A stretch of 64,000 nucleotides of DNA. Source: Betaproteobacteria bacterium (GTDB lineage Bacteria; Pseudomonadota; Gammaproteobacteria; Burkholderiales; SG8-41). The stretch lies in NCBI GenBank assembly GCA_900299145.1, contig OMIN01000100.1, forward strand, positions 1 through 64,000, read 5' to 3'. Positions within the stretch are counted from its first letter, which is position 1; each line of letters starts with the position of its first letter. The position numbers and the translations under genes were made by a program. The notes under the pieces are model-generated. The model saw only the letters and a program-made list of their open reading frames with translations, ran no database searches and was not told where the DNA came from. Shown here piece after piece: positions 13,201-61,297 of the stretch.

Positions 13201-13689
13201 TCAGCGAGCAAAATTCCTGATGTAACGCACCAACTGCCAGATTTCCTCGTCTGTCAGATTGCGGTAGGCCGGCATGCTCGACCCCGTTTGCGGCGGCATC
13301 GCGGTATCCGGCGAGCCGTTCTGAATGATCCAGAAAAGTTGCCCGTCCGGCAAATCACTCATGATCTCCTTGCAGGTAAAGTTGCGTGGCCGCGGCACAT
13401 ATTGACTGGCCAGATAGCCCTTGCCGTCACCTTTTGCACCGTGACAGAACAGACAAGGTACTGACTTGGACTTGCCGGTATAGCTACGTTCAGCGGCCGC
13501 CAGTACTTCCGGCGATGCAGGCAAAGGGTTGGTGCGAGACAAATAGTCTGCCGGCGCCTTGGCCGTATTGCGTCGCTGCGGGCATTCTCCCGGCGCAGGA
13601 TCCGCTGCGTTCGCCAAACCCGTGCCAACCCATGAACACAAAAATACAAATAAAATCAGATACTTATGAATTGCATCCCATTCCGGCAT
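13201..13689 (-). CDS. Periplasmic c-type cytochrome, class I
   Basis: 162-aa secreted monoheme cytochrome. The N-terminus has a hydrophobic signal segment (HKYLILFVFLCSWVGTGLANA, cleavage near residue 28). The heme motif is CLFCH within VPCLFCHGAKGDGKG; a distal Met is likely in AMPPQTGSSMPAYRNLTDEE, and IWQLVRYIRNF is the usual C-terminal helix. The ATG follows GAGGAGGG. Its electron-transfer partner is unknown. A copy of the AT-rich dispersed repeat encodes most of the signal peptide's hydrophobic core, so that stretch differs sharply in base composition from the rest of the gene. Confidence 0.88.
   Translation of the reverse strand: MPEWDAIHKYLILFVFLCSWVGTGLANAADPAPGECPQRRNTAKAPADYLSRTNPLPASPEVLAAAERSYTGKSKSVPCLFCHGAKGDGKGYLASQYVPRPRNFTCKEIMSDLPDGQLFWIIQNGSPDTAMPPQTGSSMPAYRNLTDEEIWQLVRYIRNFAR
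13641..13666 (-). repeat. AT-rich dispersed repeat, copy 1 (inside cytochrome signal peptide)
   Basis: Reads TAAGTATCTGATTTTATTTG and on into Ts on the minus strand. It is in sense orientation and in frame, encoding KYLILFVF of the cytochrome signal peptide. Confidence 0.8.
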
Positions 13690-14053
13690 TATCCCTCCTC
13701 GTTAGGGGCTTTACCGCCGCTATCCTCCAGGACACGCACGCAAGCCTTCTTGGTCCGATGGTTGTACTGGTTGTTTACTGATTTGCAATTGCCATTGCTT
13801 ATGCCAGCCAAATTTGTCATCGGAGGACTTGTCCGCCAGCCGATTATCGCGTTGCACAACACGCGTGACTGTGAACTATTTCACACTTGCCTGAAGATTT
13901 CCGTAGCAAACCCGCCCACCTCAATCCGGTTTGCCCAAGTAATTTGACTGCATTGCCGCCTGCCCACCGCCGGATTAGTATCCAAGGCAAAACATTGTCA
14001 GAACGTCCCCGTTCTGCGCGCCCGCCATCTCACTTTCCCAACCGGAGCACCCC
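13690..14053. other. Divergent intergenic region
   Basis: About 360 bases between the leftward cytochrome gene and the rightward BKACE gene. It should hold both promoters; no clear operator, RNA or gene was seen. Confidence 0.4.
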
Positions 14054-14988
14054 GTGGCCGAAGCCCGTAAAGTCATTATCACCTGCGCCGTCACTGGCTC
14101 GATACATACGCCGACCATGACGCCCTATCTGCCGATCACGCCAGCGGAAATTGCCGATGGCGCGGTCGGTGCGGCCGAAGCCGGCGCCGCCATTCTGCAT
14201 TTGCACGCGCGCGACCCGGTGGACGGCCGGCCCACGCCTGACCCAAAGGTGTTCATGCAGTTTCTGCCGCAGATCAAAGCCAACTCCGATGCGGTGATCA
14301 ACATCACCACCGGCGGCGGCCACGGCATGACTGTCGAGGAGCGCCTCGCCGGGCCGCTGATGGCCCAACCCGAAGTGTGCTCGCTCAACATGGGCTCGAT
14401 GAACTTTGGGCTGTATCCCAATCTCGATAGACGCCGCGAGTGGAAACACGAATGGGAGCCGCAATACCTCGAAGCCAGCCGCGATTTCATTTTTCGCAAC
14501 ACCTTCAAGGACATCGAGTATTCGTTAAAGCACCTCGGCGAAGGCTGCGGCACACGCTTTGAATTCGAGTGTTACGACGTCGGGCATCTTTACAACCTGG
14601 CGCATTTTCTCGACCGCAAACTGGTAAAGCCGCCGCTCTTCGTGCAGACGATATTCGGCATCCTCGGCGGCATCGGCACGCACCACGAAAATCTGATGCA
14701 CATGGAACCATCGCCGACAAACTGTTCGGCAATCAGTACGTATGGTCGATTCTCGGTGCAGGCCGCCACCAGATGGGGCTTGTGACCATGGGCGCGCTGA
14801 TGGGCGGCAACGTGCGCGTGGGCCTTGAAGACAGTATTTATCTGGGCAAGGGCGAACTGGCCAAAAGTAACGCCGCGCAGGTGGCAAAGATCCGCCGCAT
14901 CCTCGAAGACCTGTCGCTGGACATCGCAACACCCGCCGACGCACGACGCATGCTGGATTTAAAGGGCGCGGCGAACGTCGCTTTCTAA
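14054..14988 (+). pseudogene. Beta-keto acid cleavage enzyme (BKACE, DUF849), frameshifted
   Basis: BKACE enzymes are zinc-dependent TIM barrels that condense a beta-keto acid with acetyl-CoA, giving acetoacetate and a CoA ester. The first frame reads VIITCAVTGSIHTPTM, ILHLHARDPVDGRPTPD and ITTGGGHGMTVEERL to about residue 217 (ENLMHM); the family then continues one frame back from 14704 with GTIADKLFGNQYVWSILGAG to MGGNVRVGLEDSIYLGKGE and the stop at 14988. One base is missing around 14700-14706. Restoring it gives 311 aa, the normal length. The start is GTG after a GGAG. Either a real inactivating mutation or a base lost from a short G run. Confidence 0.85.
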
Positions 14989-14995
14989 CCCTTCC

Positions 14996-15022
14996 TAACT
15001 ATTTGTTTTTATTAAATATTTA
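14996..15022 (+). repeat. AT-rich dispersed repeat, copy 2
   Basis: Begins TAACTATTTGTTTTTATTAA, seven bases after the BKACE stop codon, in the convergent gap before the Bug gene. Confidence 0.85.
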
Positions 15023-15093
15023 GCCGGCGCACGCAGTCACGGTACTACCACTGAACCACCGGGTTGCCGGCGGCTGCCCAATAACGACGCGCG

Positions 15094-16104: not shown

Positions 16105-16131
16105 ACTGCTACGCTAATCAGGAAGGACGGC

Positions 16132-16685: not shown

Positions 16686-16712
16686 AAAAACATTAATTAA
16701 AACAGATACTTA
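16686..16712 (-). repeat. AT-rich dispersed repeat, copy 3
   Basis: Reads TAAGTATCTGTTTTAATTAA on the minus strand, between the unknown conserved gene and the selenoprotein. The AT tract runs directly into the selenoprotein ribosome-binding site. Confidence 0.85.
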
Positions 16713-17896: not shown

Positions 17897-18868
17897 TCAA
17901 TTCACCGCCTTAATCCCCGCCTCTTTCAACACTTTGGCAAAGCGCTCGGTTTCCTTTTTCAGGAACGCGCTGAACTCCGCCGGCGTGGAAGGCGCCGGTT
18001 CCACACCCACGCCGAGCATGCGCTCGCGCACTTCAGGCATGGCGAGCAGCTTGGTGAATTCCCGATTGAGCCGCGTGATGACGGCCTGCGGCGTGTTGGG
18101 CGGCGTGAGCAGCCCGTACCAGCCGTTCAGTTCATAGCCCGGCAAGGTTTCGGCGATGGTCGGCTGGCCGGGCGCGAGTGCCGTGGGCGAGCGGGTGGTT
18201 ACACCGAGCACCCGAGCTTTTTGGCCGCCGGCAATCAGCGACAGCGTGGGCACGGCGGTGCAGGTGGCATGCATCTGCCCGCCCATCACTTCGGTCATCG
18301 CCATCGCGCTGGCCTTGTACGGCACGTGTACGAGCTTCAAGCCCGCCATCGATTGAAAGATTTCCATGCACAAATGTGCACTGGTTCCGGTGCCGCCGGT
18401 GCCATACATCACGAAATCCGGTTTTGATTTGGCGAAGGCGATGAACTCCGCGGTGTTTTTCGCCGGGATGGTCGTGCTGGTCACGATGGCGAATGGCGTT
18501 CCGCCGATGTAACCCACCGGCACGTAGCCACGCGCGAGATGAAATTTGTCGTAGAGCGTGGTGCTGATAAGCTGCGTCAGCGTAACCACCCAAATCGTGT
18601 AACCGTCTGGCGCGGCACGCGCTACCAGTTCGGCTGCAATCAAGCCGCTCGCGCCTGGTCGGTTGTCAACGACGACCTGCTGCCCCAGCATTTCGGAAAG
18701 GCGCGGCGACAAGAGCCGCGCCACCACGTCCGAGCCGGAGGCCGCAGCAGTGGACGTCACCCAGCGTATGGGGCGCACGGGATAGTTCGGCGCAGGCTGA
18801 GCCGGTTGCGCAGCAGCCTCGAAACACATTGAAAAAAATACCAATAAATACAGATAGTTACGAAACAT
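17897..18868 (-). CDS. Bug/TctC-family periplasmic receptor (paralogue A)
   Basis: 323-aa periplasmic receptor. The signal peptide ([20 protein letters not shown]) is unusually AT-rich because a dispersed-repeat copy encodes NYLYLLVFF. The mature protein has [50 protein letters not shown] and [19 protein letters not shown]. The HLCMEIF variant is shared with the next two receptors, which marks the three as close paralogues. The frame extends to TTG at 18883; the ATG at 18868 is preferred. It lies about 120 bases upstream of the unknown conserved gene. Confidence 0.9.
18832..18860 (-). repeat. AT-rich dispersed repeat, copy 4 (inside Bug signal peptide)
   Basis: Reads TAACTATCTGTATTTATTGG on the minus strand, in frame within paralogue A, encoding the hydrophobic core of its signal peptide. 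Confidence 0.85.
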
Positions 18869-21944: not shown

Positions 21945-21952
21945 ATCTTCTC

Positions 21953-21980
21953 CAAATAATTATTTTAAATCAGATACTTA
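21953..21980 (-). repeat. AT-rich dispersed repeat, copy 5
   Basis: Reads TAAGTATCTGATTTAAAATA on the minus strand, filling the gap between the monooxygenase stop codon and the ribosome-binding site of the next Bug gene. Confidence 0.85.
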
Positions 21981-21983
21981 CAG

Positions 21984-23114
21984 CTAGGCCGCTTGATCCA
22001 CAGCCTTGGCTGTTCCTTCCCGGGCAATTGCCGCATTGACACGCGGCATCACCTCGGTCGCCATCAATTCCATCGATCGCTTGGTGAGTCTTTCATCGAC
22101 CCAATCCATGCCGGCGTAAACCAGTTCACCGAAATCACCGACCTGTACGCGCAGCTTCAGAATCTGATCGACGACACTGTTGACGGTGCCGTAGATCACA
22201 AGATTGTCGAGCACGCGGTCCTCGGTAATCGCGCTGTCCGGTTCGTTCTGATCGAATTTGAAAATGACGTGGCGCCTGGCTTTCATCATTTTGTAGGTGA
22301 GTTGCTTCCAGTAAAAGCGATACGGGCTGCGCGGGTCGTCACGGCCGTAGCGTTTTGCCGTGGCTTCGTCGTCGGCAACAAAAATCGTGCGCGCGATGCG
22401 CCAGTCGGCAGGGTCGGCCACCTGCCCCGCCTGCTTTTTCCCTTCACAATAATTCGCCCAGTGGCTGGGCAACCATTTCGAGAACAAAAAGTTCGCCGAC
22501 AGGGGATGAAAATCTCGCTTGCCCATCTGGATCACGCCCTTGGAAAACGGCGCGACGACAGTGCCAACGATTTCCGGCCTTGGCTTTTGATACGGCTTGT
22601 AAAGGTGCCCGCGACCGATGGCGGCATCGCGCATTTTCTCCACCGTCACCTTGTAGCGATTGTCCGGCAGGTCGATGTTGTACGGCGGATCACGTTTCCA
22701 GATTTCCAGGATCACGTCAATACATTCGGCGAACATTTTTTGCCGGTCCTGATCCAGATTGCCCAGCGCCTCGGCGTCGCAAGGCAATGCGCCGGCGCTG
22801 ATGCCCAGAATAAAACGCCCCTTGGCGATGTGGTCGAACATGGCCGAGTTGGAAGCAATAATCACCGGGTGTTGTTGCGAAAGGTTCGTCGTGCCTGTGC
22901 CGAGCTTGATGGTTTTGGTGTCGCTGATCAGCGTCGCCAGAAACAGCAGGCTATTGGTAACGTTTTCGGTTTTTTCGGTGAGATGCTCGCCGACGAACGC
23001 GTCGTAAAAGCCCAGCTTGTCGGCCAGAATAATCGCCTCGCGGTCTTCGGCGAGGGTATCCGTGCAGCTCCGGTCCTCCGGGTGCATGGGCATGGTGAAA
23101 TAGCCCAGACGCAT
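21984..23114 (-). CDS. LLM-class flavin-dependent monooxygenase
   Basis: 376-aa TIM-barrel protein of the bacterial luciferase-like family, which oxidises substrates with reduced FMN or F420-type flavin. The start MRLGYFTMPMHPEDRSCTDT, the EHLTEK stretch, IKLGTGTTNLSQQHPVIIAS and GRFILGISAGALPCDAEALG are typical. The ATG follows a strong AGGAGG. It sits between the LysR gene and four Bug genes, all on the minus strand, so it probably acts on, or after, the imported compound. A separate flavin reductase is not seen nearby. Confidence 0.88.
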   Translation of the reverse strand: MRLGYFTMPMHPEDRSCTDTLAEDREAIILADKLGFYDAFVGEHLTEKTENVTNSLLFLATLISDTKTIKLGTGTTNLSQQHPVIIASNSAMFDHIAKGRFILGISAGALPCDAEALGNLDQDRQKMFAECIDVILEIWKRDPPYNIDLPDNRYKVTVEKMRDAAIGRGHLYKPYQKPRPEIVGTVVAPFSKGVIQMGKRDFHPLSANFLFSKWLPSHWANYCEGKKQAGQVADPADWRIARTIFVADDEATAKRYGRDDPRSPYRFYWKQLTYKMMKARRHVIFKFDQNEPDSAITEDRVLDNLVIYGTVNSVVDQILKLRVQVGDFGELVYAGMDWVDERLTKRSMELMATEVMPRVNAAIAREGTAKAVDQAA

Positions 23115-27800: not shown

Positions 27801-27827
27801 AATTTATTATTTAAAATCAAATACTTA
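27801..27827 (-). repeat. AT-rich dispersed repeat, copy 6
   Basis: Reads TAAGTATTTGATTTTAAATA on the minus strand, just upstream of the grpE promoter and opposite in orientation to grpE. Confidence 0.8.
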
Positions 27828-32870: not shown

Positions 32871-34663
32871 ATGTCCGAATCCAACGAAGCCGCCGCGCAA
32901 GCCCAACTGGCCGAAAAAGTCGCCGAGGCGCTGGCCGATATCCAGCAGCATGTACTGGCTAACGCCGCGAAGCCCTTCACCCAGGGTGCGGGGCAGATCG
33001 ACGCCAATACGGTGTTGCAGCAACTGGCGCAGGATTTCGTGCGCAATCCGCAGCGTTGGCATTTCTTGCAGCAGGAGTGGTATCAGCGACAGCTGGCGCT
33101 GTGGATGTCGGCCGCCAGCAATGCGGGGGAGGCATCCCCTGGCCAAGCCGAACAAAAAGCCGCGCCGATACTCGACCGGCGCTTTCGCGGCCCAGAGTGG
33201 CACGCGCCGTTCTTCCGCTGGCTGTCTCAATCGTATCTGATCACGTCGCAGTGGATGGAAGGCATCGCCAGCGGCGTTGAGCTGATGCCGCATGACAAAA
33301 AGCGCGCGGCTTTTCAGATTCGCCAGTGGATTGACGCAGCTTCGCCCGCGAATTACCTGTGGAGCAATCCGGAGGCGTTGAAGCTCGCGGCGGATACCAA
33401 GGGTGCAAGCCTTGCGCAGGGTTTGCAAAACCTGCGCGCTGATCTGCCCAAGGGCATGGTATCGATGACGGACGAAAGCGCATTCGAGATCGGCAAGAAC
33501 ATCGCCACCACGCCAGGCGACGTGGTGTTTGAAAATGACGTGCTGCAGCTTATCCAGTACCGGCCGCTGACTGACGAGGTCTATTCGCGGCCGCTCTTGA
33601 TGGTGCCTCCGTGCATCAACAAGTTTTATATTCTCGATTTACAGGCGGAAAACTCGCTGGCGCGATTTTGCGTCGAGCAGGGCCACACGACCTTCATGGT
33701 GTCGTGGCGCAATGTGCCGCCGGAGTGCGGCAAGCTGACGTGGGACGATTATGTTTCAGCGCTCATCGACGCCATCGAAGCCATGCGCGATATCTGCGGT
33801 GTCCAGCAATCAACGGGCTGGCGTTTTGCGTAGGCGGCACGCTGCTGGCCTGTGCGCTTGCAGTGCTGAAAAAAAGCCGCAAGCATCCGGTCGCCAGTGT
33901 TGCGCTGCTCGCCACCATGCTCGATTTTTGTGACACCGGCGAATTGTCAGTATTTATCGACGAAGCCTACGTCGAGCGCCGGGAGCGCGAATTCGCTTTG
34001 GAAAGAGGCGGCGGCATTCTGCCCGGCCGCGAACTGGCGGTGACCTTTGCCACGTTGCGCGCGAACGATCTCATCTGGAATTACGTCGTCAACAATTACC
34101 TCAAGGGTAAAACGCCGCCGGCGTTCGATCTGCTCTACTGGAATTGCGACAGCACCAACCTGCCCGGCCCGATGTATGCGTGGTACATCCGCCACACCTA
34201 CCTCGAAAACAATCTGCGCACTCCGGACAAACTCACAGTGTGCGGCAAACCGCTCGATTTATCCGCGCTGGATTTGCCCACGTATCTGCTCGCCACGCGC
34301 GAGGATCATATTGTGCCGTGGAAAACAGCATACGCGAGCACCAAGCTGCTGAAGGGCGACCTTACGTTTGTGTTGTCGGCCAGCGGCCACATTGCCGGCA
34401 TCGTCAATCCAGCGCGCGCCAACAAGCGCAACTACTGGGTGAACGAAGATCTTTCCACCGATGCGGATACCTGGCTGGGCGCTTCAAAGCCGGTACCCGG
34501 CAGTTGGTGGAATCACTGGGCAGCGTGGGCGGCGCCCCATGGCGGCGGCAAAGTGCCGGCACGCAAAATCTCCGGTAGCAAAAAGTACCCGGTGATCGAA
34601 CCCGGGCCGGGCCGCTACGTGCATGCCAAAGCCGAGCCGCCCACCACTGAGGAAAAATCGTAA
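32871..34663 (+). pseudogene. phaC: Class I polyhydroxyalkanoate synthase PhaC, frameshifted
   Basis: PhaC polymerises 3-hydroxybutyryl-CoA into PHB granules. The first frame (NPQRWHFLQQEWYQRQLALWM, MVPPCINKFYILDLQ, LTWDDYVSALIDAIEAMRDICGVQQ) ends wrongly at 33833. The family continues one frame back from 33809 with INGLAFCVGGTLLACALAVL, where the catalytic Cys is residue 320 (Cys319 in Cupriavidus), then TREDHIVPW (Asp) and SASGHIAGIVNP (His). One base is missing at 33808-33810, where CAATC replaces an expected CAAATC. The corrected product is 597 aa, normal for class I. As written the protein stops just before its active site. It heads phaC-phaB-phaR. The stop TAA is supplied by a repeat copy. 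Confidence 0.9.
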
Positions 34664-36353: not shown

Positions 36354-37691
36354 ATGCCGGCGAAAAAAGTCGGATTTGTTTCGCTCGGCTGCCCCAAGGC
36401 GCTGGTCGATTCCGAGCGCATCCTCACTCAGTTGCGCGCCGAAGGCTACGCGATATCGCCCTCGTACAACGATGCTGATCTGGTCGTCGTCAATACCTGC
36501 GGCTTCATCGACTCCGCGGTGGAAGAATCGCTGGACGCGATCGGCGAAGCGCTCGCAGAAAACGGCAAGGTTATTGTCACCGGCTGTCTCGGCGCCAAGG
36601 GCGATATCGTCAAGCAAACGCACCCCAAAGTGCTGGCCGTCACTGGCCCACACTCCGCCGATGAGGTCATGAAGGCGGTGCACAAGCACTTGCCGCACAA
36701 ACACAACCCGCACGTCGATCTGGTGCCACCCCAGCGTGATATCGGTATCAAACTCACGCCCAAACACTACGCCTATCTGAAAATCGCCGAAGGCTGCAAT
36801 CACCGCTGCACGTTTTGCATCATCCCGTCGATGCGCGGCGATCTGGTGAGCCGCCCTATCGGTGACGTAATGCAGGAAGCGCAAAATCTGGTGAAAGCCG
36901 GCGTGAAAGAGTTGCTGGTGATTTCGCAGGACACCAGCGCCTACGGCGTCGATGTCAAGTACCGCACAGGCTTCTGGGGCGGGCGGCCGATCCGCACGCG
37001 CATGCTCGAACTGGCGCGCGCGCTGGGCGATTTGGGTGTCTGGATAAGGCTTCATTACGTTTACCCATACCCGCACGTGGACGAAGTGATTCCACTGATG
37101 GCGCAGAACACCACTGAGGGCAAAATCCTGCCGTACCTCGACGTGCCGTTTCAGCACGCCAGCCCTCGCATTCTCAAGCTGATGAAGCGCCCTGCCAATG
37201 CCGAAAACACGCTAGCGCGCATCAAGGCCTGGCGTGCGATTTGTCCGGAGCTGACCATCCGCAGCACCTTCATCGCAGGCTTCCCCGGCGAAACCGAAGC
37301 CGAGTTTCAGCAATTGCTGGATTTTCTCGAAGAAGCGCAGCTCGACCGCGTCGGCTGTTTTGCCTATTCGCCGGTGGAAGGCGCAGCCGCCAACGCGCTG
37401 CCGAATCCCGTGCCGGAAGACGTGCGCGAGGAACGCCGCGCGCGCTTCATGCAGACGCAGGAAAAAATTTCCAAAGCACGCCTCAAACAGAAAGTCGGCA
37501 AGACACTGACCGTGCTTGTCGACAGCATCGACAATGACAAGGCTGTCGCGCGTTCCGCAGCCGATGCGCCGGAAATCGACGGCACGGTGATCATTACCGG
37601 CAGCGCTGCGGCCAAGCTCAAGCCCGGCGATTTCGCCACGGTGAAAATCACGCGTGCTGGCGCGCACGATCTTCATGGAATAATTGTTTAA
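36354..37691 (+). CDS. rimO: Ribosomal protein S12 methylthiotransferase RimO
   Basis: 445-aa radical-SAM enzyme that adds a methylthio group to an aspartate of ribosomal protein S12. The N-terminal domain ([39 protein letters not shown]) holds the first iron-sulfur cluster; the radical-SAM motif is [15 protein letters not shown] (C-x3-C-x2-C); a C-terminal TRAM domain ends the protein. The [10 protein letters not shown] and FIDSAVEES signatures separate it from MiaB. The stop codon lies within a dispersed-repeat copy. Confidence 0.96.
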
Positions 37692-37704
37692 AAACAGATA
37701 CTTA
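37682..37704 (-). repeat. AT-rich dispersed repeat, copy 9
   Basis: Reads TAAGTATCTGTTTTTAAACA on the minus strand. On the plus strand it spans the rimO stop codon and ends on the A of the next gene's ATG. Confidence 0.85.
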
Positions 37705-38096
37705 TGATAGAAAAGCTGCGGCAGTGGGCCAAGCGTCTGAAGCGCGAAGCTGTCACCCTGTGGTTTTGCTACCGCGATCCGCGCACGCCACTCATTGCGC
37801 GCCTGCTGGCTATCGGCGTGGTGGCCTACGCCTTCAGCCCGATCGATCTCATTCCGGATTTCATCCCGGTGCTGGGCTTTCTCGACGACGCGCTACTGCT
37901 GCCCATTGGCATTTGGCTCACACTGAAATTTATCCCGAAACCCGTGCTGGCGGATTGCCGCGAAAAGGCTGAGCAATGGATGGCGCAATCCCACGGCAAA
38001 CCGCGCAACTGGTTTGGCGCCGCTATCATCTTCGCGCTGTGGCTCGCCGCCGCATGGCTTACATGGGTGCTGTGCCGAGACTGGCTTTTCGCCTAA
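37704..38096 (+). CDS. DUF1232 (YkvA-like) membrane protein
   Basis: 130-aa small membrane protein with the DUF1232 core PLIARLLAIGVVAYAFSPIDLIPDFIPVLGFLDDALLLPIGIWL and a second hydrophobic segment at the C-terminus (FGAAIIFALWLAAAWLTWVL). Function unknown. The start codon is 13 bases after the rimO stop and has no ribosome-binding site, because the gap is filled by the AT-rich repeat; translational coupling to rimO is possible. Confidence 0.85.
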   Translation: MIEKLRQWAKRLKREAVTLWFCYRDPRTPLIARLLAIGVVAYAFSPIDLIPDFIPVLGFLDDALLLPIGIWLTLKFIPKPVLADCREKAEQWMAQSHGKPRNWFGAAIIFALWLAAAWLTWVLCRDWLFA

Positions 38097-40575: not shown

Positions 40576-41787
40576 ATGAAACCAAACTACCGATGCTACC
40601 TCCTCTGCGGCCTGTTGAGCGCGCTAATCACACTGGGGCCGCAAACTGCCGCACAGCAGGCGACTCCATCACCCGCCGGCATCGATGAAAAATCGCTGTC
40701 GCTACAAGAGCGGCTGGGGCTCAAGCTGTTTTTCGATACCCGCCTGTCGGAGCCGGCGGGCCAATCCTGCGCCTCGTGTCACGACCCCGCGAAAGCCTTT
40801 ACCGGCAACAATGGCACGGCCATCGGCGTAGCGCTCGGCAGCCGCCCTGGCACGTTTGGCACGCGCGACACACCCACGGCGATGTATCTCGCCACCGCGC
40901 CACGCTTTGGCAGCACAGTCAAGGACGGCAAGACCGTGCCCGCGGGGGGCCTGTTCTGGGACGGGCGCGCGGACACGCTGGAAGATCAGGCCAAGGGGCC
41001 GTTTTTCAATCCGCTGGAAATGAACAACCCCAGCGTGCCGGCATTGATCACCAAGGTCCTGCAAGGCCCCTACGCCGCCGAGTTTCGGCAGCTATGGGGC
41101 GCAAAGATTTTCGATCAACCCGATGCCGCGCTTGACGCCGTCGCCGCTTCCATTGCCGCGTTTGAGCGCACGCGCGTGTTTCAGCCCTTCACCTCGAAGT
41201 TCGACTACGTCATGCGCGGAAAGGCAAAGTTTACCGAGCAGGAACAGCGCGGCTTGAGCCTTTTCACGATCCGCCAAAAGGGCAATTGCGCACACTGCCA
41301 TACCGTCGATGAAGCCTCGCGCGACCCGGCCAAATCCCTGTTCACCGACTTTGGCTACCACGCGCTGGGCGCGCCGCGCAGCCAGCGCATTCCGCGCAAC
41401 GCCGCCGACACCACGTTCATGGATATGGGACTGTGCGAACGCGCGCCGATGTCGGGCAAACAGGCGGTGAAGGACGAAAACCACTGCGGCCTGTTCAAGA
41501 CGCCAACACTGCGCAACATCGCCCTCACCGCTCCGTACATGCACAATGGCGTGTTCGACAATTTGCGCGACGTGGTGGCGTTCTACGCCACGCGCGACAC
41601 CGACCCGCTCAAGTGGTACCCCGATGGCAAAAAGTTCAATGACCTGCCGTCAATCTTTCACGGCAACGTCGACGTCGATACGCCACCCTACCAGCGCCGC
41701 CCCAAACAGCGGCCGCAGCTCAACGACGAGGAAATCGACGACATTGTCGCGTTTTTAAAAACGCTGACAGATGGCCACAAACCGTAA
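40576..41787 (+). CDS. Di-heme cytochrome c peroxidase / MauG-family protein
   Basis: 403-aa secreted protein with a signal peptide (about 1-27) and two heme c motifs: CASCH at 65-69 (GQSCASCHDPAKAF) and CAHCH at 238-242 (GNCAHCHTVDE). FKTPTLRNIALTAPYMHNG is the conserved region of bacterial cytochrome c peroxidases and MauG. It could remove peroxide or oxidise a protein or cofactor; sequence alone does not decide. It is divergent from the beta-propeller gene. Its TAA stop is the first three bases of a repeat copy. Confidence 0.92.
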   Translation: MKPNYRCYLLCGLLSALITLGPQTAAQQATPSPAGIDEKSLSLQERLGLKLFFDTRLSEPAGQSCASCHDPAKAFTGNNGTAIGVALGSRPGTFGTRDTPTAMYLATAPRFGSTVKDGKTVPAGGLFWDGRADTLEDQAKGPFFNPLEMNNPSVPALITKVLQGPYAAEFRQLWGAKIFDQPDAALDAVAASIAAFERTRVFQPFTSKFDYVMRGKAKFTEQEQRGLSLFTIRQKGNCAHCHTVDEASRDPAKSLFTDFGYHALGAPRSQRIPRNAADTTFMDMGLCERAPMSGKQAVKDENHCGLFKTPTLRNIALTAPYMHNGVFDNLRDVVAFYATRDTDPLKWYPDGKKFNDLPSIFHGNVDVDTPPYQRRPKQRPQLNDEEIDDIVAFLKTLTDGHKP

Positions 41788-41812
41788 CTATTTGTTTTTA
41801 TTTAATAATTTC
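41785..41812 (+). repeat. AT-rich dispersed repeat, copy 10
   Basis: Begins TAACTATTTGTTTTTATTTA. Its TAA is the stop codon of the di-heme peroxidase gene. Confidence 0.88.
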
Positions 41813-46034: not shown

Positions 46035-46417
46035 GTAGTCCTTTTTCAGCACACGAGAAACCATCCATACTGCTAAGGCTTTGAAAGCGGAAAACTTTAC
46101 ACATTCGCGCTGCAGTGTAACGCTGATTGACCTCGGTAAACCCCGCCCTTTGACAATTTGCAAATACTTTACAAGAGTGCGCCCAATGCACAGCAACTCG
46201 CGGATTCGCGGAACATACCAGAAATGATAATGGAATGTTGGATTATGCCGTATGGGAGGCGCCAACCGGCTGGCGTCCTGCGGCACTGGTAAACGGGAAC
46301 GAATAGCACCACGCGGCCTACCGCCAGACCCGAACTGCCCCATCTTCAAATAATCCATATGAAACAAATACTTACGAGAAATATTCGTTTAAGAGCATTT
46401 CTGCTACGCTCCGGTCG
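46035..46417. other. Divergent intergenic region
   Basis: About 380 bases between rhodanese and MFS genes, holding one dispersed-repeat copy and a TTGACA (46150-46155) without a matched -10. No gene was supported. Confidence 0.4.
46347..46374 (-). repeat. AT-rich dispersed repeat, copy 11
   Basis: Reads TAAGTATTTGTTTCATATGG on the minus strand, about 44 bases before the MFS start codon. Confidence 0.75.
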
Positions 46418-52863: not shown

Positions 52864-53658
52864 ATGTACACCCGTCACTCACTCACCCCGCTCGCCGCCG
52901 CACTCGCCATGGCCGCAACGGTTTTATTCACGCCGGCTGCGCACGCACAAGTCGCCAAGGTCAACGGTGTGGAAATTCCGCAGGCCCGGCTCGACATGAT
53001 TCTGAAAGTGCGCGCTGCAAATAAGCAGCCCGATTCGCCCGAGGTGCGCAACGCCCTGCGCGACACGCTGATCAATCAGGAAGTTGTCGTGCAGGAAGCC
53101 ATGAAAAAGGGCCTGCAAAAAAATCCGGAAGTCGCCGCTCAGCTTGATCTTCAACGGCAGGAAATCCTGGTCAATGCCTTCGTGCAGGATTACATGAAAG
53201 CCAACCCGATTACCGAAGACGCCATCAAGAAGGAATATGAGCGCGTCAAACCCACCATCCCCGCTAAGGAATTCAAGGCCCGCCACATTCTGGTGGACAA
53301 AGAAGAAGACGCCAAGGACGTTATCGCCCAGATCAAAAAAGGTGCCAGCTTCGAGAAACTCGCCGCGGACAAATCGAAAGACACCGGCTCCAAAACGCGC
53401 GGCGGTGATCTCGATTGGGCGCCCGCAACCCGCTACGTCAAACCTTTCGGCGAAGCGCTCGGCAAACTAAAAAAAGGCCAGCTGACCGACGCACCGGTGC
53501 AAACTGAATTCGGCTTTCATGTAATCCGTCTGGACGACGAACGCGCCGTGAAAGTTCCCACGATAGAAGAAGCCAAACCGCAGATTACGCAGATGCTTCA
53601 GGGGCAAGCCGTGCAAAAAATGCTGGCGGATTTGCGGGCAAAGGCAAAAGTAGATTAA
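52864..53658 (+). CDS. Periplasmic parvulin-type peptidyl-prolyl isomerase
   Basis: 264-aa secreted foldase. Signal peptide MYTRHSLTPLAAALAMAATVLFTPAAHAQ, an N-terminal SurA-like helical region (about 30-130) and a parvulin domain (FKARHILVDKEEDAKDVIAQI, GGDLDWAPATRYVKPFGEAL, TEFGFHVIRLDDER). It should assist folding of exported proteins. Its stop TAA is the first three bases of a degenerate repeat copy. Confidence 0.94.
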   Translation: MYTRHSLTPLAAALAMAATVLFTPAAHAQVAKVNGVEIPQARLDMILKVRAANKQPDSPEVRNALRDTLINQEVVVQEAMKKGLQKNPEVAAQLDLQRQEILVNAFVQDYMKANPITEDAIKKEYERVKPTIPAKEFKARHILVDKEEDAKDVIAQIKKGASFEKLAADKSKDTGSKTRGGDLDWAPATRYVKPFGEALGKLKKGQLTDAPVQTEFGFHVIRLDDERAVKVPTIEEAKPQITQMLQGQAVQKMLADLRAKAKVD

Positions 53659-53682
53659 ATATCTGCTTTATATGACATTTTT
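53656..53682 (+). repeat. AT-rich dispersed repeat, degenerate copy 12
   Basis: Begins TAAATATCTGCTTTATATGA. Its TAA is the parvulin stop codon; it differs from the core at two positions. Confidence 0.6.
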
Positions 53683-54451: not shown

Positions 54452-57400
54452 TCAGTGCACCCACTGCCGTGCATTCCGAAACATTCGCAGCCAAGGCCCA
54501 TCCTCTCCCCAAGCCTTGTCACCCGCCGGATGCCACGAATTCTGCGCCGTACGAAACACCCGCTCCGGGTGCGGCATCAAAATCGTAAACCGGCCATCGG
54601 GCGTGGTGAGACCGGTGATGCCTTGCGGCGAGCCATTGGGGTTTAGCGGGTAACGTTCTGTCACCTGCCCGGCGTTGTCGACGAAACGCAGCGCCACCAG
54701 CGGCTGCGCAGCCTTCAAAGCGGTCGCATCGGCAAACTCGGCATAACCCTCACCGTGCGCCCCCGCCACCGGCAGCCGGCTGCCCGCCATTCCCGTAAAA
54801 AACAGCGAGGGCGACGGCTGGATTTCCAGTGTAGCCACACGCGCCTCAAATTGCTCGGATTTGTTCTTGACGAAATGGGGCCACGCAGTAGCCCCCGGTA
54901 TCAGCGTGCTCAGGTTACTCATCATCTGGCAGCCATTGCACACGCCCAGCGCGAAAGTGCCGTCACGGTGGAAAAACGCCTCGAACTCGTCCCGCGCGCG
55001 CGCGTTGAACAGAATCGATTTCGCCCAGCCCTCGCCCGCACCCAGCACGTCGCCATACGAAAACCCGCCGCACGCGGCGAAGCCCTTGAAATCCGCGAGG
55101 CTCACGCGCCCGGCGATGATGTCGCTCATGTGCACGTCAATTGCGGCAAATCCCGCGCGGTCAAATGCCGCCGCCATTTCGATCTGACCGTTCACGCCCT
55201 GCTCGCGCAGAATCGCCATGCGGGGGCGCACGCCGGTGGCTATCAAGGGCGCGCTGATGTTCTGTGACGGATGGTAGGTCAGCACCGGCGTGATGCCGGG
55301 ATCGGCTGCATCAAGGATCCGATCATATTCCTCAAACGCGCACTGTGGGTTGTCACGCAGGCTTTGCATTCGATACGTCGTTTCCGACCATGCGCGATGC
55401 AAATCAATGCGCTTTTCGCACAGCACGTCACGTCCGCCCACGCGCACGCGCAGCACGGCTTCAAAGTCAACCTTGCCTACTAGACCGATACGCAGACATG
55501 GAACGCCCGCCTGCGTGAATGCCTCGCACACGTGTGCCTCATTCGCCGCGCCCACCTGCACCACCGCGCCCAGCTCTTCGTTAAATAGTGTGTCGAGGGC
55601 TTGCGAGCCGGCGGGAAAATCCAATGTCACGCCGCAGCGTGCGGCAAACATCATCTCGCACACTGTAGCCAGCAGCCCACCGTCGGAACGGTCATGATAC
55701 GCCAGCAACTTATCTGTAAGTATTTGTTTTAATTTAATAAATTTGACAAGGCTGGCAGGATTATCCAGATCAGGCGCAACCGTGCCAGTAACGCCCCAAG
55801 CCTGCGCCAACGCCGATCCGCCCAGCCGCTGTTTGCCATGTGCCAGATCGATGAGCAACAACACCGTATCACCGCAATCCGTACGCAATTGCGGCGTGAG
55901 CGTTTGCCGCACGTCCGCCACCGGCGCGAATGCAGAGACGATCAGTGACAGTGGCGCGACAACCTCTTTTTTCTGGCTCCCATCCATCCAGGTTGTCTTC
56001 ATCGACAACGAATCCTTGCCCACCGGAATGCTGACGCCCAACTGCGGGCACAATTCCATTGCCACGGCTTGCACGGTGTCATACAACGCAGCATCTTCGC
56101 CGCCGTGCCCCGCAGACGCCATCCAGTTGGCCGAGAGCTTGATGTCGCCAATTTTAGCGATGGGCGCTGCGGCAATATTGGTAATCGCCTCGCCCACTGC
56201 CATGCGGCCCGAGGCTGCGGCGTTGATCACCGCCAACGGCGTGCGCTCGCCCATGGCGAAGGCTTCGCCGCGATAGGTGTTGAAACCCATCAGCGTCACC
56301 GCCACGTCCGCCACCGGCACTTGCCACGGGCCGACCATTTGATCGCGCGCCGTCATGCCACCCACGCTGCGGTCGCCGATACTGATCAAAAAAGTTTTAT
56401 CCGCCACCGACGGCATGCGCAGCACACGATAAACCGCTTCACGCAAATCGATTTGGGAAAAATCCAATTCGGGCAAAGTCTTCGCCACATGCGAAACGCG
56501 CCGCGTCATTTTCGGCGGCTTGCCCAGCAGCACCGACAACGCCATGTCCACGGCGTTGTTCTTGAACACTGGGTCGCGCACGGTCAGGCGCCCGTCAACG
56601 GTACCTTCGCCCACCACCGCGTACGGGCAACGCTCGCGAGCGCATATTGCGTCGAACGTGGCCAACGAAGCAGGCGCAATCGCCAGCACATAACGCTCTT
56701 GCGCCTCATTGCACCAGATTTGCATCGGCGACATGCCGGGCTCTTCGCTCGGCACCTTGCGCAGATCGAAGCGGCCGCCCAAGCCCGCCTGATGCACCAT
56801 TTCCGGCAACGCATTCGAAATGCCACCTGCCCCGACATCGTGTATCGACAGAATCGGATTGGCATCGCCCAGAGCGCAGCAGCGGTCGATGACTTCCTGT
56901 GCACGGCGCTGAATTTCCGCGTTGCCGCGCTGCACCGAATCAAAATCCAGATCAGCCTGATTGGCGCCGGTGTCCATGCTCGACGCCGCGCCACCGCCCA
57001 AGCCGATCAACATGCCCGGCCCGCCGAGTTGAATCAGCAGCGCACCCGCGCCCGGCTCAGCCTTGAACGCGCGCCGCGCGGCAATATTGCCGACGCCACC
57101 CGCGATCATGATCGGCTTGTGATAACCGCGCACTTCGCCCGCGACGTTTTGTTCAAAGGTACGGAAGTAGCCCGCCAGATTCGGCCGGCCGAATTCATTA
57201 TTGAAAGCCGCGCCACCGATGGGCCCTTCCAGCATGATTTGCAACGCCGAGGCGATGCGCGCGGGCTTGCCATAGGCGTCACGCTCCCACGGTTGTATCG
57301 CATCCGGCAAACACAAATTGGAAACACTAAATCCCGTCAATCCCGCCTTCGGTTTGGAGCCCCGCCCCGTCGCCCCTTCGTCACGAATTTCACCGCCAGA

Positions 57401-58348
57401 ACCGGTGGCTGCGCCCGGATACGGCGCTATCGCCGTCGGATGATTATGCGTTTCCACCTTCATCAAAATATGCGTATCGTCTTCGACAAAGCGATACTCA
57501 TTGGCGAGCGATGCATCCGCGCCCGGATAAAAGCGTTCCACGCGAGCGCCTTCAATAATCGACGAATTATCCGAGTAGGCCACCACCGTGCCCTGCGGAT
57601 GCTTGGCGTGCGTGGTGCGGATCATGCCGAACAGGGAAATATCCTTCGCCACGCCGTCGATCACCCAATCGGCGTTGAAAATCTTGTGGCGGCAGTGTTC
57701 CGAATTGGCCTGCGCGAACATCATCAATTCGACGTCCGTCGGGTTGCGGCCCATGCGCGTGAAATTCTCGACGAGGTAAGAGATTTCGTCGTCGGACAAC
57801 GCCAACCCCAAGTCACGGTTCGCGCGCGCCAGCGCACCCGCGCCGCCGCCGAGTATGTCCACCGTGGTCAGTGGCTTCGGTTCAAAGCGCTGGAACAACT
57901 TGTCCGCGTCGTCCATCGACGTGAATACGGCTTCAGTCATGCGGTCGTGAATCAACGGCAGCAACGCCGCGCACGCTGCATCGCTAGTGACGCCATCCAG
58001 CCAAAACGCCGTGCCGCGCTCGATACGGCGCACCGCAGGCAAGCCGCAGTGCTTGGCAATATCGGTCGCCTTGGATGACCACGGCGAAATCGTGCCGGGG
58101 CGTGGCGTTACCAACAACAACCGCCGCGCGCGCGAGTCTTGCCCCGCATCAACAGCGGAAACCGGGCCGTAGGTCAGTATGCGTTCGAGCCGCGTCTGCT
58201 CCGCGTCATCCAGCGCACGTTCGGCCTCGACAAAATGCCAGAACTCCGCGTGGATTTTGACGCCAGCCAAGGCAGCCGGCAGCGATTGTAAAAGTTTTGC
58301 GAGGCGGAAATCAGAAAGGGCGCGCCGCCCCCGAAGACGCAGAATCAT
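54452..58348 (-). CDS. purL: Phosphoribosylformylglycinamidine synthase (FGAM synthase)
   Basis: 1298-aa single-chain PurL of the purine pathway, converting FGAR, glutamine and ATP to FGAM. Domains in order: N-terminal PurS-like ([16 protein letters not shown]), linker ([23 protein letters not shown]), two AIRS-like halves ([33 protein letters not shown]) and a C-terminal glutaminase ([26 protein letters not shown] with the catalytic Cys; MPHPERVFR). At about residues 870-880 the stretch [20 protein letters not shown] is encoded by an AT-rich repeat copy, and is about two residues shorter than usual there. The frame stays open. Confidence 0.98.
55717..55744 (+). repeat. AT-rich dispersed repeat, copy 13 (inside purL)
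   Basis: Begins TAAGTATTTGTTTTAATTTA on the plus strand, antisense to purL, and is preceded by a partial duplicate TTATCTG. It encodes [10 protein letters not shown] of PurL in frame, in a conserved enzyme of otherwise high GC. Confidence 0.9.
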
Positions 58349-58446
58349 TGCTGTGCAGACTCTGTAAAGCCTTATTTTACCATCGCTCCTTGCGCTGCCA
58401 TGGGCGACGTCGGCTGCGCCGCTTTTCCGCTAGACTAATACCCATC

Positions 58447-60024
58447 ATGCCAGCTCGTCTTACACACGGCAGTCCGCTCTATTTGACGAGCGATATCCGC
58501 CGCATTGAAGCGCGCCACGGGCACCTGCCGTTGATGGAGCGCGCGGGCCATGCTGCCGCAAAGCTCGCGCGCGCACTCGCTGGCGATGGTGGTCAACCCG
58601 TACTGATTTTCGCCGGGCCGGGCAACAACGGCGGTGATGCCTTCGTCGCCGCGCGTTACCTCAAGCAATGGTTTTTTGCAGTGACTGTGGTATTCGCCGG
58701 CGAAGTGCACAAGCTGCCCGCGGATGCCGCCGCGGCCCATCGCGCGTGGCTCGCGGCCGGCGGAGCCACCATCGACACGCCACTGCGCGCGAGCACGTGG
58801 AGTCTGGTGATTGATGGCCTGTTCGGCATCGGCGGCGGCGGCATTGCCCGGCCGATTGAGGGCCGCTACGCGGACTGGATCGCACTCATTAACGCGCATC
58901 AATCCAGCGGCGCGCCGGTGCTCGCTCTCGACATTCCCAGCGGTCTGAATGCCGACACCGGCGCGGTGCACGGCAGCTGCGTACGCGCCACGCATACCCT
59001 CACCTTCATCGCCGCCAAGCCCGGCCTGCTGACGCTGGATGGCCCCGATCACGCCGGTGAAATTTTCGTCGAAGACCTTGCGCTGGATACACGCGAAGAC
59101 ACAGCACCCGGTGACGTGCGCGGCTACGTGCTAGGCGCCACCAGCGGACTCGCGCCACGCCGCCGTAATACGCACAAAGGCAGCCACGGCAGTGTTGGCA
59201 TCATCGGCGGCGCACATGGCATGGTGGGCGCGGCGCTGCTCGCAGGGCGTGCAGCGTTAAAACTCGGTGCGGGCCGTGTCTATGTGGGCCTTCTCGCTCG
59301 CGATGCGCCGTTGCTGGATGCGCAGCAGCCCGAACTCATGCTGCGCGATGCAGGCGATGTTTTGAAACTCGATCACTTGAGTTGCCTCGCCGTTGGCCCC
59401 GGCCTGGGTCAATCGCCGGAAGCGGCTTTTTATGTGCGATGCGCGCTGGAATGTGCGCAGGCGCGTGGCTTGCCGCTCATCATCGACGCCGACGGACTGA
59501 ATCTTATCGCTCGCAGCGCCGAACTGAAAAATCAATTAAAACAGATAGTTACAGAAATTCTTTTGACGCCGCATCCCGCCGAAGCCGCGCGCCTGCTTGC
59601 CTGTTCCACCGCGCAGGTGCAGGCGGATCGCATCGCGGCCGCAACCAAACTGTCCGTTCAGTTCAACTGTCACGTGGTGCTCAAGGGCGCGGGCAGCGTG
59701 TGCGCGTCACCCGGCAGGCCGTGGCGGGTCAACCTTAGTGGCAATCCGGGTATGGCCGCTGCCGGCATGGGCGACGTGCTGACTGGCATCATCGCCGCGC
59801 TGCTGGCGCAAGGTATGCCCGCGCAAAGTGCACAGCTTACACAGTGCGCGCTCGACAACGCCGTGTGGCTGCACGGCGCGGCGGCGGATGCGTGCGTGGC
59901 TAGTGGCTTGGGGCCGGTGGGCCTCACGGCTGGCGAAACCATTGATGCCGCACGGCGCTTGTATCGGGCCAGCACCGATGCAACCGTGCTGCATTCCCCT
60001 ACCGCAGGCGCGCAACACCCGTGA
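58447..60024 (+). CDS. nnr: Bifunctional NAD(P)H-hydrate epimerase / dehydratase
   Basis: 525-aa metabolite-repair enzyme. The N-terminal epimerase half (IRRIEARHGHLPLMERAGHAAA, VLIFAGPGNNGGDAFVAARYL, IDGLFGIGG) joins a C-terminal ADP/ATP-dependent dehydratase (RRRNTHKGSHGSVGIIGGAHGMVGAALLAGRAAL, LTPHPAEAARLL, NLSGNPGMAAAGMGDVLTGIIAALLAQG). The start is ATG 58447; the longer frame overlaps purL. A repeat copy encodes KNQLKQIVTEI just before LTPHP, with no length change relative to remembered homologues. It overlaps the next gene by four bases. Confidence 0.95.
   Translation: MPARLTHGSPLYLTSDIRRIEARHGHLPLMERAGHAAAKLARALAGDGGQPVLIFAGPGNNGGDAFVAARYLKQWFFAVTVVFAGEVHKLPADAAAAHRAWLAAGGATIDTPLRASTWSLVIDGLFGIGGGGIARPIEGRYADWIALINAHQSSGAPVLALDIPSGLNADTGAVHGSCVRATHTLTFIAAKPGLLTLDGPDHAGEIFVEDLALDTREDTAPGDVRGYVLGATSGLAPRRRNTHKGSHGSVGIIGGAHGMVGAALLAGRAALKLGAGRVYVGLLARDAPLLDAQQPELMLRDAGDVLKLDHLSCLAVGPGLGQSPEAAFYVRCALECAQARGLPLIIDADGLNLIARSAELKNQLKQIVTEILLTPHPAEAARLLACSTAQVQADRIAAATKLSVQFNCHVVLKGAGSVCASPGRPWRVNLSGNPGMAAAGMGDVLTGIIAALLAQGMPAQSAQLTQCALDNAVWLHGAAADACVASGLGPVGLTAGETIDAARRLYRASTDATVLHSPTAGAQHP
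59526..59551 (-). repeat. AT-rich dispersed repeat, copy 14 (inside nnr)
   Basis: Reads TAACTATCTGTTTTAATTGA on the minus strand, antisense to nnr, in frame and between two conserved motifs of the dehydratase domain. Confidence 0.9.
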
Positions 60025-61265
60025 GCCAACCCGCCCGCGTCAGCATTTTCAAGGGCGGCGGATTGATCGCGTTAAAGGTGCGTGATTTCCGCCTTTACTG
60101 GAGCGGCCTCGTCGCACAGGTGATGGGCCAGCACATGTATCAATTCTCGCTCGGCTGGCTGTCGTTCGAGATCACCGGCTCGCAGGCGCAACTGGGCTTG
60201 ATCCACCTGTGCGCGTTCGTACCACAGTTTTCACTGACGCTGATCGGTGGGGTGCTGGCTGACCGCATAGATCCGCGCCGGCTGATACAGGGCGCGCAAA
60301 CGCTTTCGGCGATTTCCGTCATTAGCATCGGTCTGCTGGCGCTGTCCGGCCGCGTGGAAATCTGGCATCTCGCCGTGGGCGCATTCATGTTTGGGCTGGT
60401 CAACGCCGTCGACGAACCAGGCCGTGCGTCGTTTTTTCCACGCCTGCTGCCGAAATCGCATCTGAGTTCCGGCATTCCGCTGATCTCGATGGCCTTCGGC
60501 ACCTCGCGCATGATCGCACCTTCCATTGCGGGCTTTGTCATTGCGTCCGTGGGCGCGCCTCCGGTGTTTTTGCTGTGCGCGCTCGGCATGAGCGTGATGA
60601 TCTCCATGCTGTTTCTGGTACGGCCCGCCGCCAGCAGCGCGGGCAAGCACGGCAGCCTGCTCGGCAACCTTGCCGACAGCCTGCGCTACATCCGCGCCAA
60701 TGAAGTGTTCTCGCGCGTGATCGTGGCCGCGCTGCTGAATGCCACGTTTCTGATGGGCTACATCCACCAACTGCCGGTGTTCGCCAAGGTGGTGCTGGAC
60801 GTTGACGCGCGCGGACTCGGCTTGCTCGCGTCGGCAGCCGGGCTGGGCGCGCTGTGCGGCTTGTTTACGTATCCGTGGTTGCAGGCGCACACCACCCGCC
60901 GCAACGCGATAGTCTACGCGCTAAGTGCTTTCAGCAGCGCGCTGATCGGCGTGGCGGTGAGCCCGTGGTTCGCGTTGTCATGCACGCTGCTGTTCGTGGT
61001 CGGGCTCAGCCAGGCTTATTTCATGACAAGCTGCCAGGTCATTCTGCAAACGCTGGTAGATGACCAGTATCGCGGCCGCGTGATGGCGGTGTTCACACTG
61101 GTATGGGGGCTGGTGTATCTGAGCGGATTTGTACTGAACCTCACCGGCTCCGTCACTGGCCCGCGCGCCGCCCTGGCGGGCAGCGGCGTCCTTGTGCTGA
61201 GTTTCGTGTGGCTTTCGCTGGCCCGTTGCGATGCGCTGCGCCGACTGGTGCTGCCCGCAAAATAA
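60021..61265 (+). CDS. Major facilitator superfamily transporter (EntS-like group)
   Basis: 414-aa inner-membrane protein with about twelve hydrophobic segments. The start KVRDFRLYWSGLVAQVMGQHMYQFSLGWL and LTLIGGVLADRIDPRRL resemble the enterobactin exporter (EntS-type) branch, though the substrate is not predictable. It starts with GTG overlapping the nnr stop, so it is translationally coupled to nnr. Confidence 0.88.
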   Translation: MSQPARVSIFKGGGLIALKVRDFRLYWSGLVAQVMGQHMYQFSLGWLSFEITGSQAQLGLIHLCAFVPQFSLTLIGGVLADRIDPRRLIQGAQTLSAISVISIGLLALSGRVEIWHLAVGAFMFGLVNAVDEPGRASFFPRLLPKSHLSSGIPLISMAFGTSRMIAPSIAGFVIASVGAPPVFLLCALGMSVMISMLFLVRPAASSAGKHGSLLGNLADSLRYIRANEVFSRVIVAALLNATFLMGYIHQLPVFAKVVLDVDARGLGLLASAAGLGALCGLFTYPWLQAHTTRRNAIVYALSAFSSALIGVAVSPWFALSCTLLFVVGLSQAYFMTSCQVILQTLVDDQYRGRVMAVFTLVWGLVYLSGFVLNLTGSVTGPRAALAGSGVLVLSFVWLSLARCDALRRLVLPAK

Positions 61266-61271
61266 CCACCA

Positions 61272-61297
61272 TAACTATCTGTTTTTATTGAATATTT
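61272..61297 (+). repeat. AT-rich dispersed repeat, copy 15
   Basis: Begins TAACTATCTGTTTTTATTGA, six bases after the MFS stop codon, in the short convergent gap. Confidence 0.9.

What the first reader, a model, noticed from the sequence alone, without database searches (positions are those of the whole stretch)
13641..61297. A short AT-rich dispersed repeat family with a 14-bp core, about 15 copies in 48 kb
Copies share TAASTATYTGWTTT followed by about 14 bp of A/T. They lie in both orientations at 13641, 14996, 16686, 18832, 21953, 27801, 34661, 35587, 37682, 41785, 46347, 53656 (degenerate), 55717, 59526 and 61272, plus a weak one at 23126. In a GC-rich genome this cannot be chance. None was found from 1 to 13.6 kb. 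They have no terminal inverted repeats or coding capacity, and the intragenic copies replace sequence instead of adding a 28-bp insert. Possible explanations: a DNA uptake-like sequence (conserved core plus AT tract, as in Haemophilus USS), a binding site for a nucleoid or segregation protein, an RNA-level signal, or a very small mobile element.
Basis: partly seen in the sequence, partly recalled or inferred. Interest (0 to 1): 0.88.

Follow-up and report, generated by a model that had tools for sequence, protein, structure and literature searches.

The report
Likely DNA-uptake signal in uncultured Burkholderiales
A 40-base AT-rich signal is scattered evenly, hundreds of times, through the genomes of a group of little-known bacteria and looks like a tag that marks their own DNA for uptake, a trick so far known only from the relatives of Neisseria and Haemophilus.

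Summary
The repeat is real and genome-wide: the core TAASTATYTGWTTT occurs 885 times exactly in the window's 5.5-Mb genome, 0 times reversed. It centres a ~40-bp motif: weak left AT flank, core, then two AT tracts about one helical turn apart. Copies lie in both orientations, avoid gene interiors and are over-evenly spaced. Two coding copies were compared and are written into existing codons, not inserted. Four genera of one family carry it, with slight dialects; so does a Gallionellales genome. Of 14 genomes of the genus, only G066 lacks it, and G066 alone lacks both ComEC and DprA while keeping PilQ. Best explanation: a DNA-uptake signal laid out like the Pasteurellaceae USS with another core. 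Uptake is untested; the receptor is unknown (a ComP-like pilin is a candidate). Against it: one loss only, and in the Gallionellales genome the copies point along the leading strand (29 of 34), unlike the window's genome. A 2025 paper names Neisseriaceae and Pasteurellaceae as the only families known to have such signals (PMC12616744).

The parts
13636..13675 (-). motif copy, core 13653-13666; lies in a signal-peptide-like start of an ORF (HKYLILFVF)
   Evidence: (42.5 bits)
14987..15026 (+). motif copy, core 14996-15009
   Evidence: 41.3 bits
16682..16721 (-). motif copy, core 16699-16712
   Evidence: 50.3 bits
18830..18869 (-). motif copy, core 18847-18860; codes the signal-peptide-like start of a TctC-family receptor ([10 protein letters not shown])
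   Evidence: (45.4 bits)
21950..21989 (-). motif copy, core 21967-21980
   Evidence: 37.3 bits
27797..27836 (-). motif copy, core 27814-27827, between predicted genes
   Evidence: 46.3 bits
34652..34691 (+). motif copy, core 34661-34674; its TAA is the stop codon of ORF 33611..34663
   Evidence: 49.2 bits
35578..35617 (+). motif copy, core 35587-35600
   Evidence: 30.8 bits
37674..37713 (-). motif copy, core 37691-37704; overlaps the end of ORF 36354..37691 and the start of ORF 37704..38096
   Evidence: 40.1 bits
41776..41815 (+). motif copy, core 41785-41798; its TAA is the stop codon of ORF 40576..41787
   Evidence: 47.0 bits
46344..46383 (-). motif copy, core 46361-46374
   Evidence: 38.1 bits
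53647..53686 (+). degenerate motif copy, core 53656-53669; its TAA is the stop codon of ORF 52864..53658
   Evidence: 28.4 bits
55708..55747 (+). motif copy inside purL (54452..58348, minus); same codons carry it in relatives
   Evidence: 46.7 bits
59521..59560 (-). motif copy inside the nnrD-like gene (58297..60024, plus); same codons carry it in relatives
   Evidence: 46.6 bits
61263..61302 (+). motif copy, core 61272-61285
   Evidence: 45.6 bits
   Evidence: 21.7 bits
   Evidence: 28.8 bits
   Evidence: 28.4 bits
   Evidence: 26.6 bits
19855..19894 (+). weak degenerate copy
   Evidence: 20.4 bits
43719..43758 (-). weak degenerate copy
   Evidence: 19.3 bits

Best explanation
In the window's lineage the repeat is a DNA-uptake signal. 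Cells take up DNA by type IV pili and ComEC/DprA; a pilus-tip protein binds the ~40-bp motif on free DNA, so fragments of their own kind are imported preferentially and recombined into the chromosome. Alleles that happen to carry a better copy are taken up more often and spread, so copies build up by point substitution at evenly spread places where they cost least (between genes, over stop codons, in signal-peptide codons). Shown: the motif, its spread, spacing, dialects, substitution in place at two sites, and the joint absence of motif, ComEC and DprA in one relative. Inferred: that the motif raises uptake, that a minor pilin is the receptor, and the drive that builds the copies up.
For: Genome-wide excess, both orientations equal: 435/450 exact copies, control 0/0. 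USS-like anatomy: core, then AT tracts at about +11..+17 and +21..+26, plus a weak left AT flank; the USS is described as a core with two discontinuous AT-rich regions downstream, up to 32 nt (PMC12616744 Introduction). Spacing more even than chance: CV 0.60 for 152 spacings; 0 of 2000 placements among gene gaps and 0 of 2000 uniform placements were as even; the same in the g3 and g5 samples, CV 0.62 and 0.61, 14 and 15 of 2000 as even. No strand polarity in the window's genome: 63 leading and 66 lagging among 129 copies on contigs with clear GC skew; 83 and 90 of 173 by local skew, 89 and 84 by local gene direction. In-place substitution and conservation inside purL and nnrD. Lineage dialects. 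Link to transformation: in the genus 13 of 14 genomes have the motif (79 to 885 exact copies), ComEC (13 of 14) and DprA (13 of 14); the one without the motif, G066 (1 copy, reversed control 2; 97% complete), is the one without ComEC and without DprA, and keeps PilQ (14 of 14). The PurL tree puts G066 next to g1+g3, while the separate g5+g2 clade also bears the motif, so absence in G066 reads as loss.
Against: No uptake was measured; the organism is known here only from an unnamed draft assembly. The competence link rests on one loss, on a long branch with shifted base composition (PurL 68% identity; GC 0.49 in the sample). In the Gallionellales genome G452 the exact copies are strand-polar: 29 of 34 on the six contigs whose GC skew was sampled point along the G-rich strand, which an uptake signal does not need and which uptake sequences are reported not to show (passage in PMC1939737). 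In the window's genome, too, orientation runs locally more than chance (89 of 152 neighbours alike, p 0.04; per-contig heterogeneity p 0.006), though not with skew or gene direction. ComEC without motif is common elsewhere in the family; one motif-bearing g5 genome (G010, 43 copies, 91% complete) and G472 (10 copies, 85% complete) show no ComEC. The ComP_DUS match is found in 63 of 74 family genomes with or without motif, so no receptor is singled out. Even spacing would also suit a chromosome-compaction site.
Confidence: 0.72

Rival explanations
1. Binding site of a nucleoid or chromosome-organising protein: an intracellular protein binds the AT-rich motif every few kb and structures the chromosome.
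For: Genome-wide, evenly spaced, mostly outside gene interiors, AT-rich.
Against: Motif near zero in other genera of the same family and 79 to 885 exact copies within the genus; kept at purL and nnrD codons with altered protein sequence; near absent in the genome without ComEC and DprA.
Confidence: 0.12
2. Strand-polar replication, segregation or recombination signal (Chi-, KOPS- or matS-like) acting inside the cell, at least in the Gallionellales lineage.
For: In G452 29 of 34 exact copies on six skew-sampled contigs point along the G-rich strand; joint absence with DprA could fit a recombination role; local orientation runs in G000.
Against: No leading/lagging bias in the window's genome, 63 versus 66 of 129; in the g5 sample 9 plus and 19 minus on a contig of positive skew, the opposite direction to G452; copies on all 21 contigs or contig pieces sampled, not one region.
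Confidence: 0.1
3. Very small mobile element (MITE- or REP-like).
For: Dispersed, many copies.
Against: Homology stops at the ~40-bp motif and flanks are unrelated; at the two coding sites compared, motif-free relatives have the same codons in register with other bases.
Confidence: 0.01
4. RNA-level or transcription signal (terminator, promoter, riboswitch).
For: Many copies sit at gene ends and in gaps.
Against: No Rfam family in the window; no close pairs (0 of 152 spacings under 500 bp); both orientations to genes, also inside genes.
Confidence: 0.03

Closest known systems
Uptake Signal Sequence (USS) of Pasteurellaceae (Haemophilus type AAGTGCGGT, Actinobacillus type ACAAGCGGT)
   Same: Short core followed by two less conserved AT-rich tracts; hundreds of copies; lineage dialects (USS description: PMC12616744 Introduction).
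   Different: Core TAASTATYTGWTTT has no GCGG; extra weak AT flank on the left; betaproteobacterial host; 20 of 173 copies wholly inside predicted genes against 65% in open reading frames reported for H. influenzae (passage in PMC1939737); no close pairs among copies with at most one mismatch.
DNA Uptake Sequence (DUS) of Neisseriaceae with receptor ComP
   Same: Also betaproteobacteria; core contains Y-T-G where DUS dialects share CTG; a pilin matching the ComP_DUS Pfam family sits in the window genome's minor-pilin cluster.
   Different: DUS are continuous and up to about 13 nt; this motif is ~40 bp and discontinuous. ComP_DUS matches occur in motif-free genomes as well.

Membership tests
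DNA-uptake signals (functional class) | Strong genome-wide over-representation, both orientations | tested here: met
   435 + 450 exact copies, control 0; in the Gallionellales G452 30 + 21 but oriented by strand
DNA-uptake signals (functional class) | Tied to natural transformation | tested here: met
   By genes only: ComEC and DprA in 13 of 14 genus members, both absent only in the motif-free G066; one loss event; G010 and G472, both incomplete, bear the motif and show no ComEC
DNA-uptake signals (functional class) | Dialects that follow phylogeny | tested here: met
   small samples for g3, g5 and G452
DNA-uptake signals (functional class) | Motif raises DNA uptake or transformation | not testable with these tools
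   needs an experiment
DNA-uptake signals (functional class) | Specific surface receptor | tested here: inconclusive
   ComP_DUS and GspH-type minor pilins present but ComP_DUS is not specific to motif-bearing genomes
Pasteurellaceae USS | Inner core GCGG | tested here: not met
   consensus TAASTATYTGWTTT
Pasteurellaceae USS | Two AT-rich tracts downstream of the core | tested here: met
   position-wise information content
Neisseriaceae DUS | Continuous motif of up to about 13 nt with constant CTG | tested here: not met
   ~40 bp, discontinuous; core position 7 is C in 34% and T in 61% of 171 copies
Mobile element (MITE/REP) | Insertion adds length, empty sites exist | tested here: not met
   substitution in place at the two coding sites compared
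Chi/KOPS-type polar motif | Bias to one replication strand | tested here: not met
   window genome: 63 leading, 66 lagging of 129. In G452 it is met: 29 of 34

The most novel reading that the evidence does not exclude
A third, independently evolved DNA-uptake code exists outside Neisseriaceae and Pasteurellaceae, and nearly the same code is used by two families of one order with many motif-free lineages between them (the window's family and a Gallionellales genus). If so, the receptor, or the code with it, has moved between families, making them members of one DNA-exchange community.
Probability: 0.28. Interest if true: 0.92.

Novelty: new variant of a known kind. Interest (0 to 1): 0.82.

Why it matters
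Uptake signals are the classic example of bacteria recognising their own DNA, yet only two families are said to have them (PMC12616744 Introduction). A third lineage, with motif-rich, motif-poor and motif-free relatives side by side and one natural absence of ComEC and DprA, would give a comparative test of how such signals arise, drift into dialects and decay, and which pilin reads them.

Tried and rejected
Wrong Pfam accession recalled for ComP (PF16744, a RING finger): one search was wasted; the right one, PF16732, came. Presence of ComP_DUS as a predictor of the motif: rejected (63 of 74 genomes). Charge of the minor pilins by motif status (28 of 30 loci gave a parsed pilin, L387 and L410 none): no clear split by eye, not pursued. 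Foreign DNA free of the motif: in two long gaps (C15, C149), of which I looked only at protein starts, I saw no obvious mobile genes, so no support from there. De novo k-mers in motif-free samples showed no comparable dispersed motif; in g7 and g9 the top ones are tandem-type repeats. Dialect matrices: one search crashed and its g5 matrix drifted into plain AT-rich DNA; the third g5 iteration drifted too, so I use first-iteration counts. One search crashed and was rerun.
Full report
OBSERVATION. The core TAASTATYTGWTTT matches the window 17 times with up to two mismatches, against 0.77 expected, and the whole genome G000 (5,508,723 bases, 158 contigs) 885 times exactly, 435 forward and 450 reverse, with none for the reversed control. 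I then read 725,876 bases of this genome (window plus 40 stretches). A scan found 111 exact, 60 one-mismatch and 38 two-mismatch copies, against 0, 0 and 10 in an order-2 simulation. A second scan that joined neighbouring stretches gave 173 copies with at most one mismatch.

ANATOMY. From the 171 copies with at most one mismatch, information above background runs from about -9 to +30: a weak AT flank (-9 to -2), a purine at -1, the core TAAsTATyTGwTTT, an A/T stretch to +17, a weaker gap at +18 to +20, and a second A/T stretch at +21 to +26. The two tracts are about ten bases apart. Outside this the flanks are unrelated.

PLACEMENT. Of 173 copies 81 lie wholly between predicted genes, 72 straddle a predicted gene edge and 20 lie wholly inside a gene, although 87.7% of the sample is predicted coding (my own gene caller, whose starts are rough). 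Three window copies use the core's TAA as a stop codon (34661, 41785, 53656). Spacing is over-regular: CV 0.60 for 152 spacings against means of 0.90 for placement among gene gaps and 0.98 for uniform placement, 0 of 2000 as even in either; 9 spacings under 1 kb against 24 and 34 expected; none under 500 bp. With weaker sites counted too, 13 of 198 spacings are under 1 kb against 53.9 expected, the smallest 112 bp. The same holds in g5 (28 sites, CV 0.61, 15 of 2000 as even) and g3 (37 sites, CV 0.62, 14 of 2000).

ORIENTATION. In G000 there is no bias to a replication strand: 63 and 66 of the 129 copies on contigs with absolute GC skew over 0.02, 83 and 90 of 173 by local skew, 89 and 84 by local gene direction. 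There are local runs all the same: 89 of 152 neighbours alike (p 0.04), per-contig heterogeneity p 0.006, for example 8:0 on C11 and 0:7 on C105. In G452 the picture differs: its exact copies are oriented by contig (50 of 51 places listed; p 0.0003), and on the six contigs whose skew I sampled 29 of 34 point along the G-rich strand (C6 8 of 8, C7 8 of 8, C15 5 of 5, C13 7 of 10, C4 1 of 2, C2 0 of 1; the skew of sampled stretches is taken for the whole contig). In the g5 sample it is 9 plus and 19 minus on a contig of positive skew, the other way round and weaker.

HOW COPIES ARISE. The copies in purL (window 55717) and in the nnrD-like gene (59538) were compared with relatives (regions). In purL nine other genomes (G069, G073, G071, G067, G068, G070, G063, G072 of g1 and G004 of g3) carry the motif or a close variant at the same codons and orientation, G061 a decayed one; eight rows (G003, G012, G055, G011, G002 and its duplicate L151, G014, G066) do not, and there the codons read mostly FFxxxQxLN-like rather than FIxxKQILT. 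The motif segment aligns without a gap; next to it G000, G069 and G073 are two codons shorter than both motif-bearing and motif-free relatives. At the nnrD site eight g1 rows besides G000 have the motif or a variant of it, G003 (g2) has an exact core, G002/L151 and three g5 genomes have decayed ones, and G004, G055 and G066 have none. So at these sites the motif was made by substitution and changed the protein.

DISTRIBUTION. In the family (74 genomes including G000): g1, 13 of 14 with 79-885 copies and G066 with 1; g3, 241 in its one genome; g5, 8-190 in all 21; g2, 7-23 in all 3; g4 and g6 none in 5 and 1; g7, g8 and g9 0-2 each, except G050 with 6. In an order-wide draw of 399 genomes only this family and G452 (family f25, 51 copies) rise well above background; elsewhere counts are 0-5, and the reversed control reaches 3. 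In G452's family (80 genomes) G452 has 51, its genus mate G472 10, G497 6, G507 5, the others 0-2. G452 is the genome of Gallionellales bacterium 39-52-133 (its C13 has the length of NCJL01000008.1, and the motif at 368871 is the one in L156). Its copies have the whole anatomy, with A at core position 10 in 91%. Dialects are mild: G000 mostly GTATT, GTATC, CTATT, CTATC at positions 3-7; g3 and g5 add GTTAT and GTAAT. Samples of G066 (206 kb), g7 (200 kb), g8 (200 kb), g9 (157 kb) and g4 (56 kb) hold 2, 0, 4, 1 and 0 sites above 15 bits.

LINK TO TRANSFORMATION. ComEC (PF03772) is in 68 of 74 family genomes and 13 of 14 of the genus; DprA (TIGR00732) in 13 of 14; PilQ (TIGR02515) in 14 of 14, over the cut-off in 13. 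The one genome without ComEC and without DprA is G066, the one without the motif; ComEC was sought there again at E up to 10 and not found. G066 is 97% complete, and the two genes lie on different contigs in G000 (C149 and C139), so a double miss by incompleteness is unlikely. In the PurL tree (39 rows, one gene, quick method, SH-aLRT 97) G066, on a long branch, joins g1+g3; the separate g5+g2 clade also bears the motif, so G066 most likely lost it. Against a simple rule: ComEC is present in most genomes of the motif-free genera; G010 (43 copies) and G472 (10 copies) show no ComEC, both in incomplete assemblies (91% and 85%). Competence without an uptake signal is ordinary (general knowledge); the two reverse cases may be missing sequence.

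RECEPTOR. The genome has a minor-pilin cluster on C69 (L366): a PilE-like pilin matching ComP_DUS (PF16732, 60.7 bits, cut-off 27.3), a GspH-type pilin, a PilV-like one, PilW, a PilX-like one below the cut-off, and ORFs that look like PilY1 (the names PilE, PilV and PilY1 are recalled). PF16732 is found in 63 of 74 family genomes, motif or not, so it names a candidate only. By sequence the candidate resembles solved type IV pilins, best a PilA.

READING. Most of what sequence can test fits a DNA-uptake signal with the layout of the Pasteurellaceae USS and another core; the polarity in G452 does not. It is not a USS (no GCGG) nor a DUS (too long, discontinuous). The Introduction of PMC12616744 (that section, abstract and outline read; [quoted passage not shown] Six searches of the paper library listed no title or abstract start that reports one in other Burkholderiales; I saw listings only, apart from PMC12616744 and five passages of PMC1939737.

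Noticed in passing
window 13653 and 18847; G000 C15:3353, C15:49054, C15:50761, C15:64042, C26:20923, C108:16443; L366:12845-13894; L367:1515-2189: Read in one frame the motif encodes K/N-Y-L-F-L-L, and a set of copies forms the hydrophobic part of signal-peptide-like N-termini, some of them of TctC-type receptors (20 copies open in that frame of 173; ORFs).
   Followed up: partly
G452 (Gallionellales bacterium 39-52-133), C6, C7, C13, C15: Same motif, but sparse and oriented along the G-rich strand (29 of 34 on six contigs); patchy in its genus: G452 51 copies, G472 10, G478 2, G466 1, G484 0. Unexplained.
   Followed up: partly
G035 (g7) and G055 (g9) samples, L325-L334 and L294, L345-L351: Strongly enriched tandem-type repeats (GTGTTGAGTG; GATGAGGGATG; TGACTCGTGAC), unrelated to the motif.
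   Followed up: no
G066: Long-branch member of the genus, lower GC (0.49 in the sample), about 4.0 Mb, without ComEC, DprA and the motif but with PilQ: a natural loss worth its own study.
   Followed up: partly
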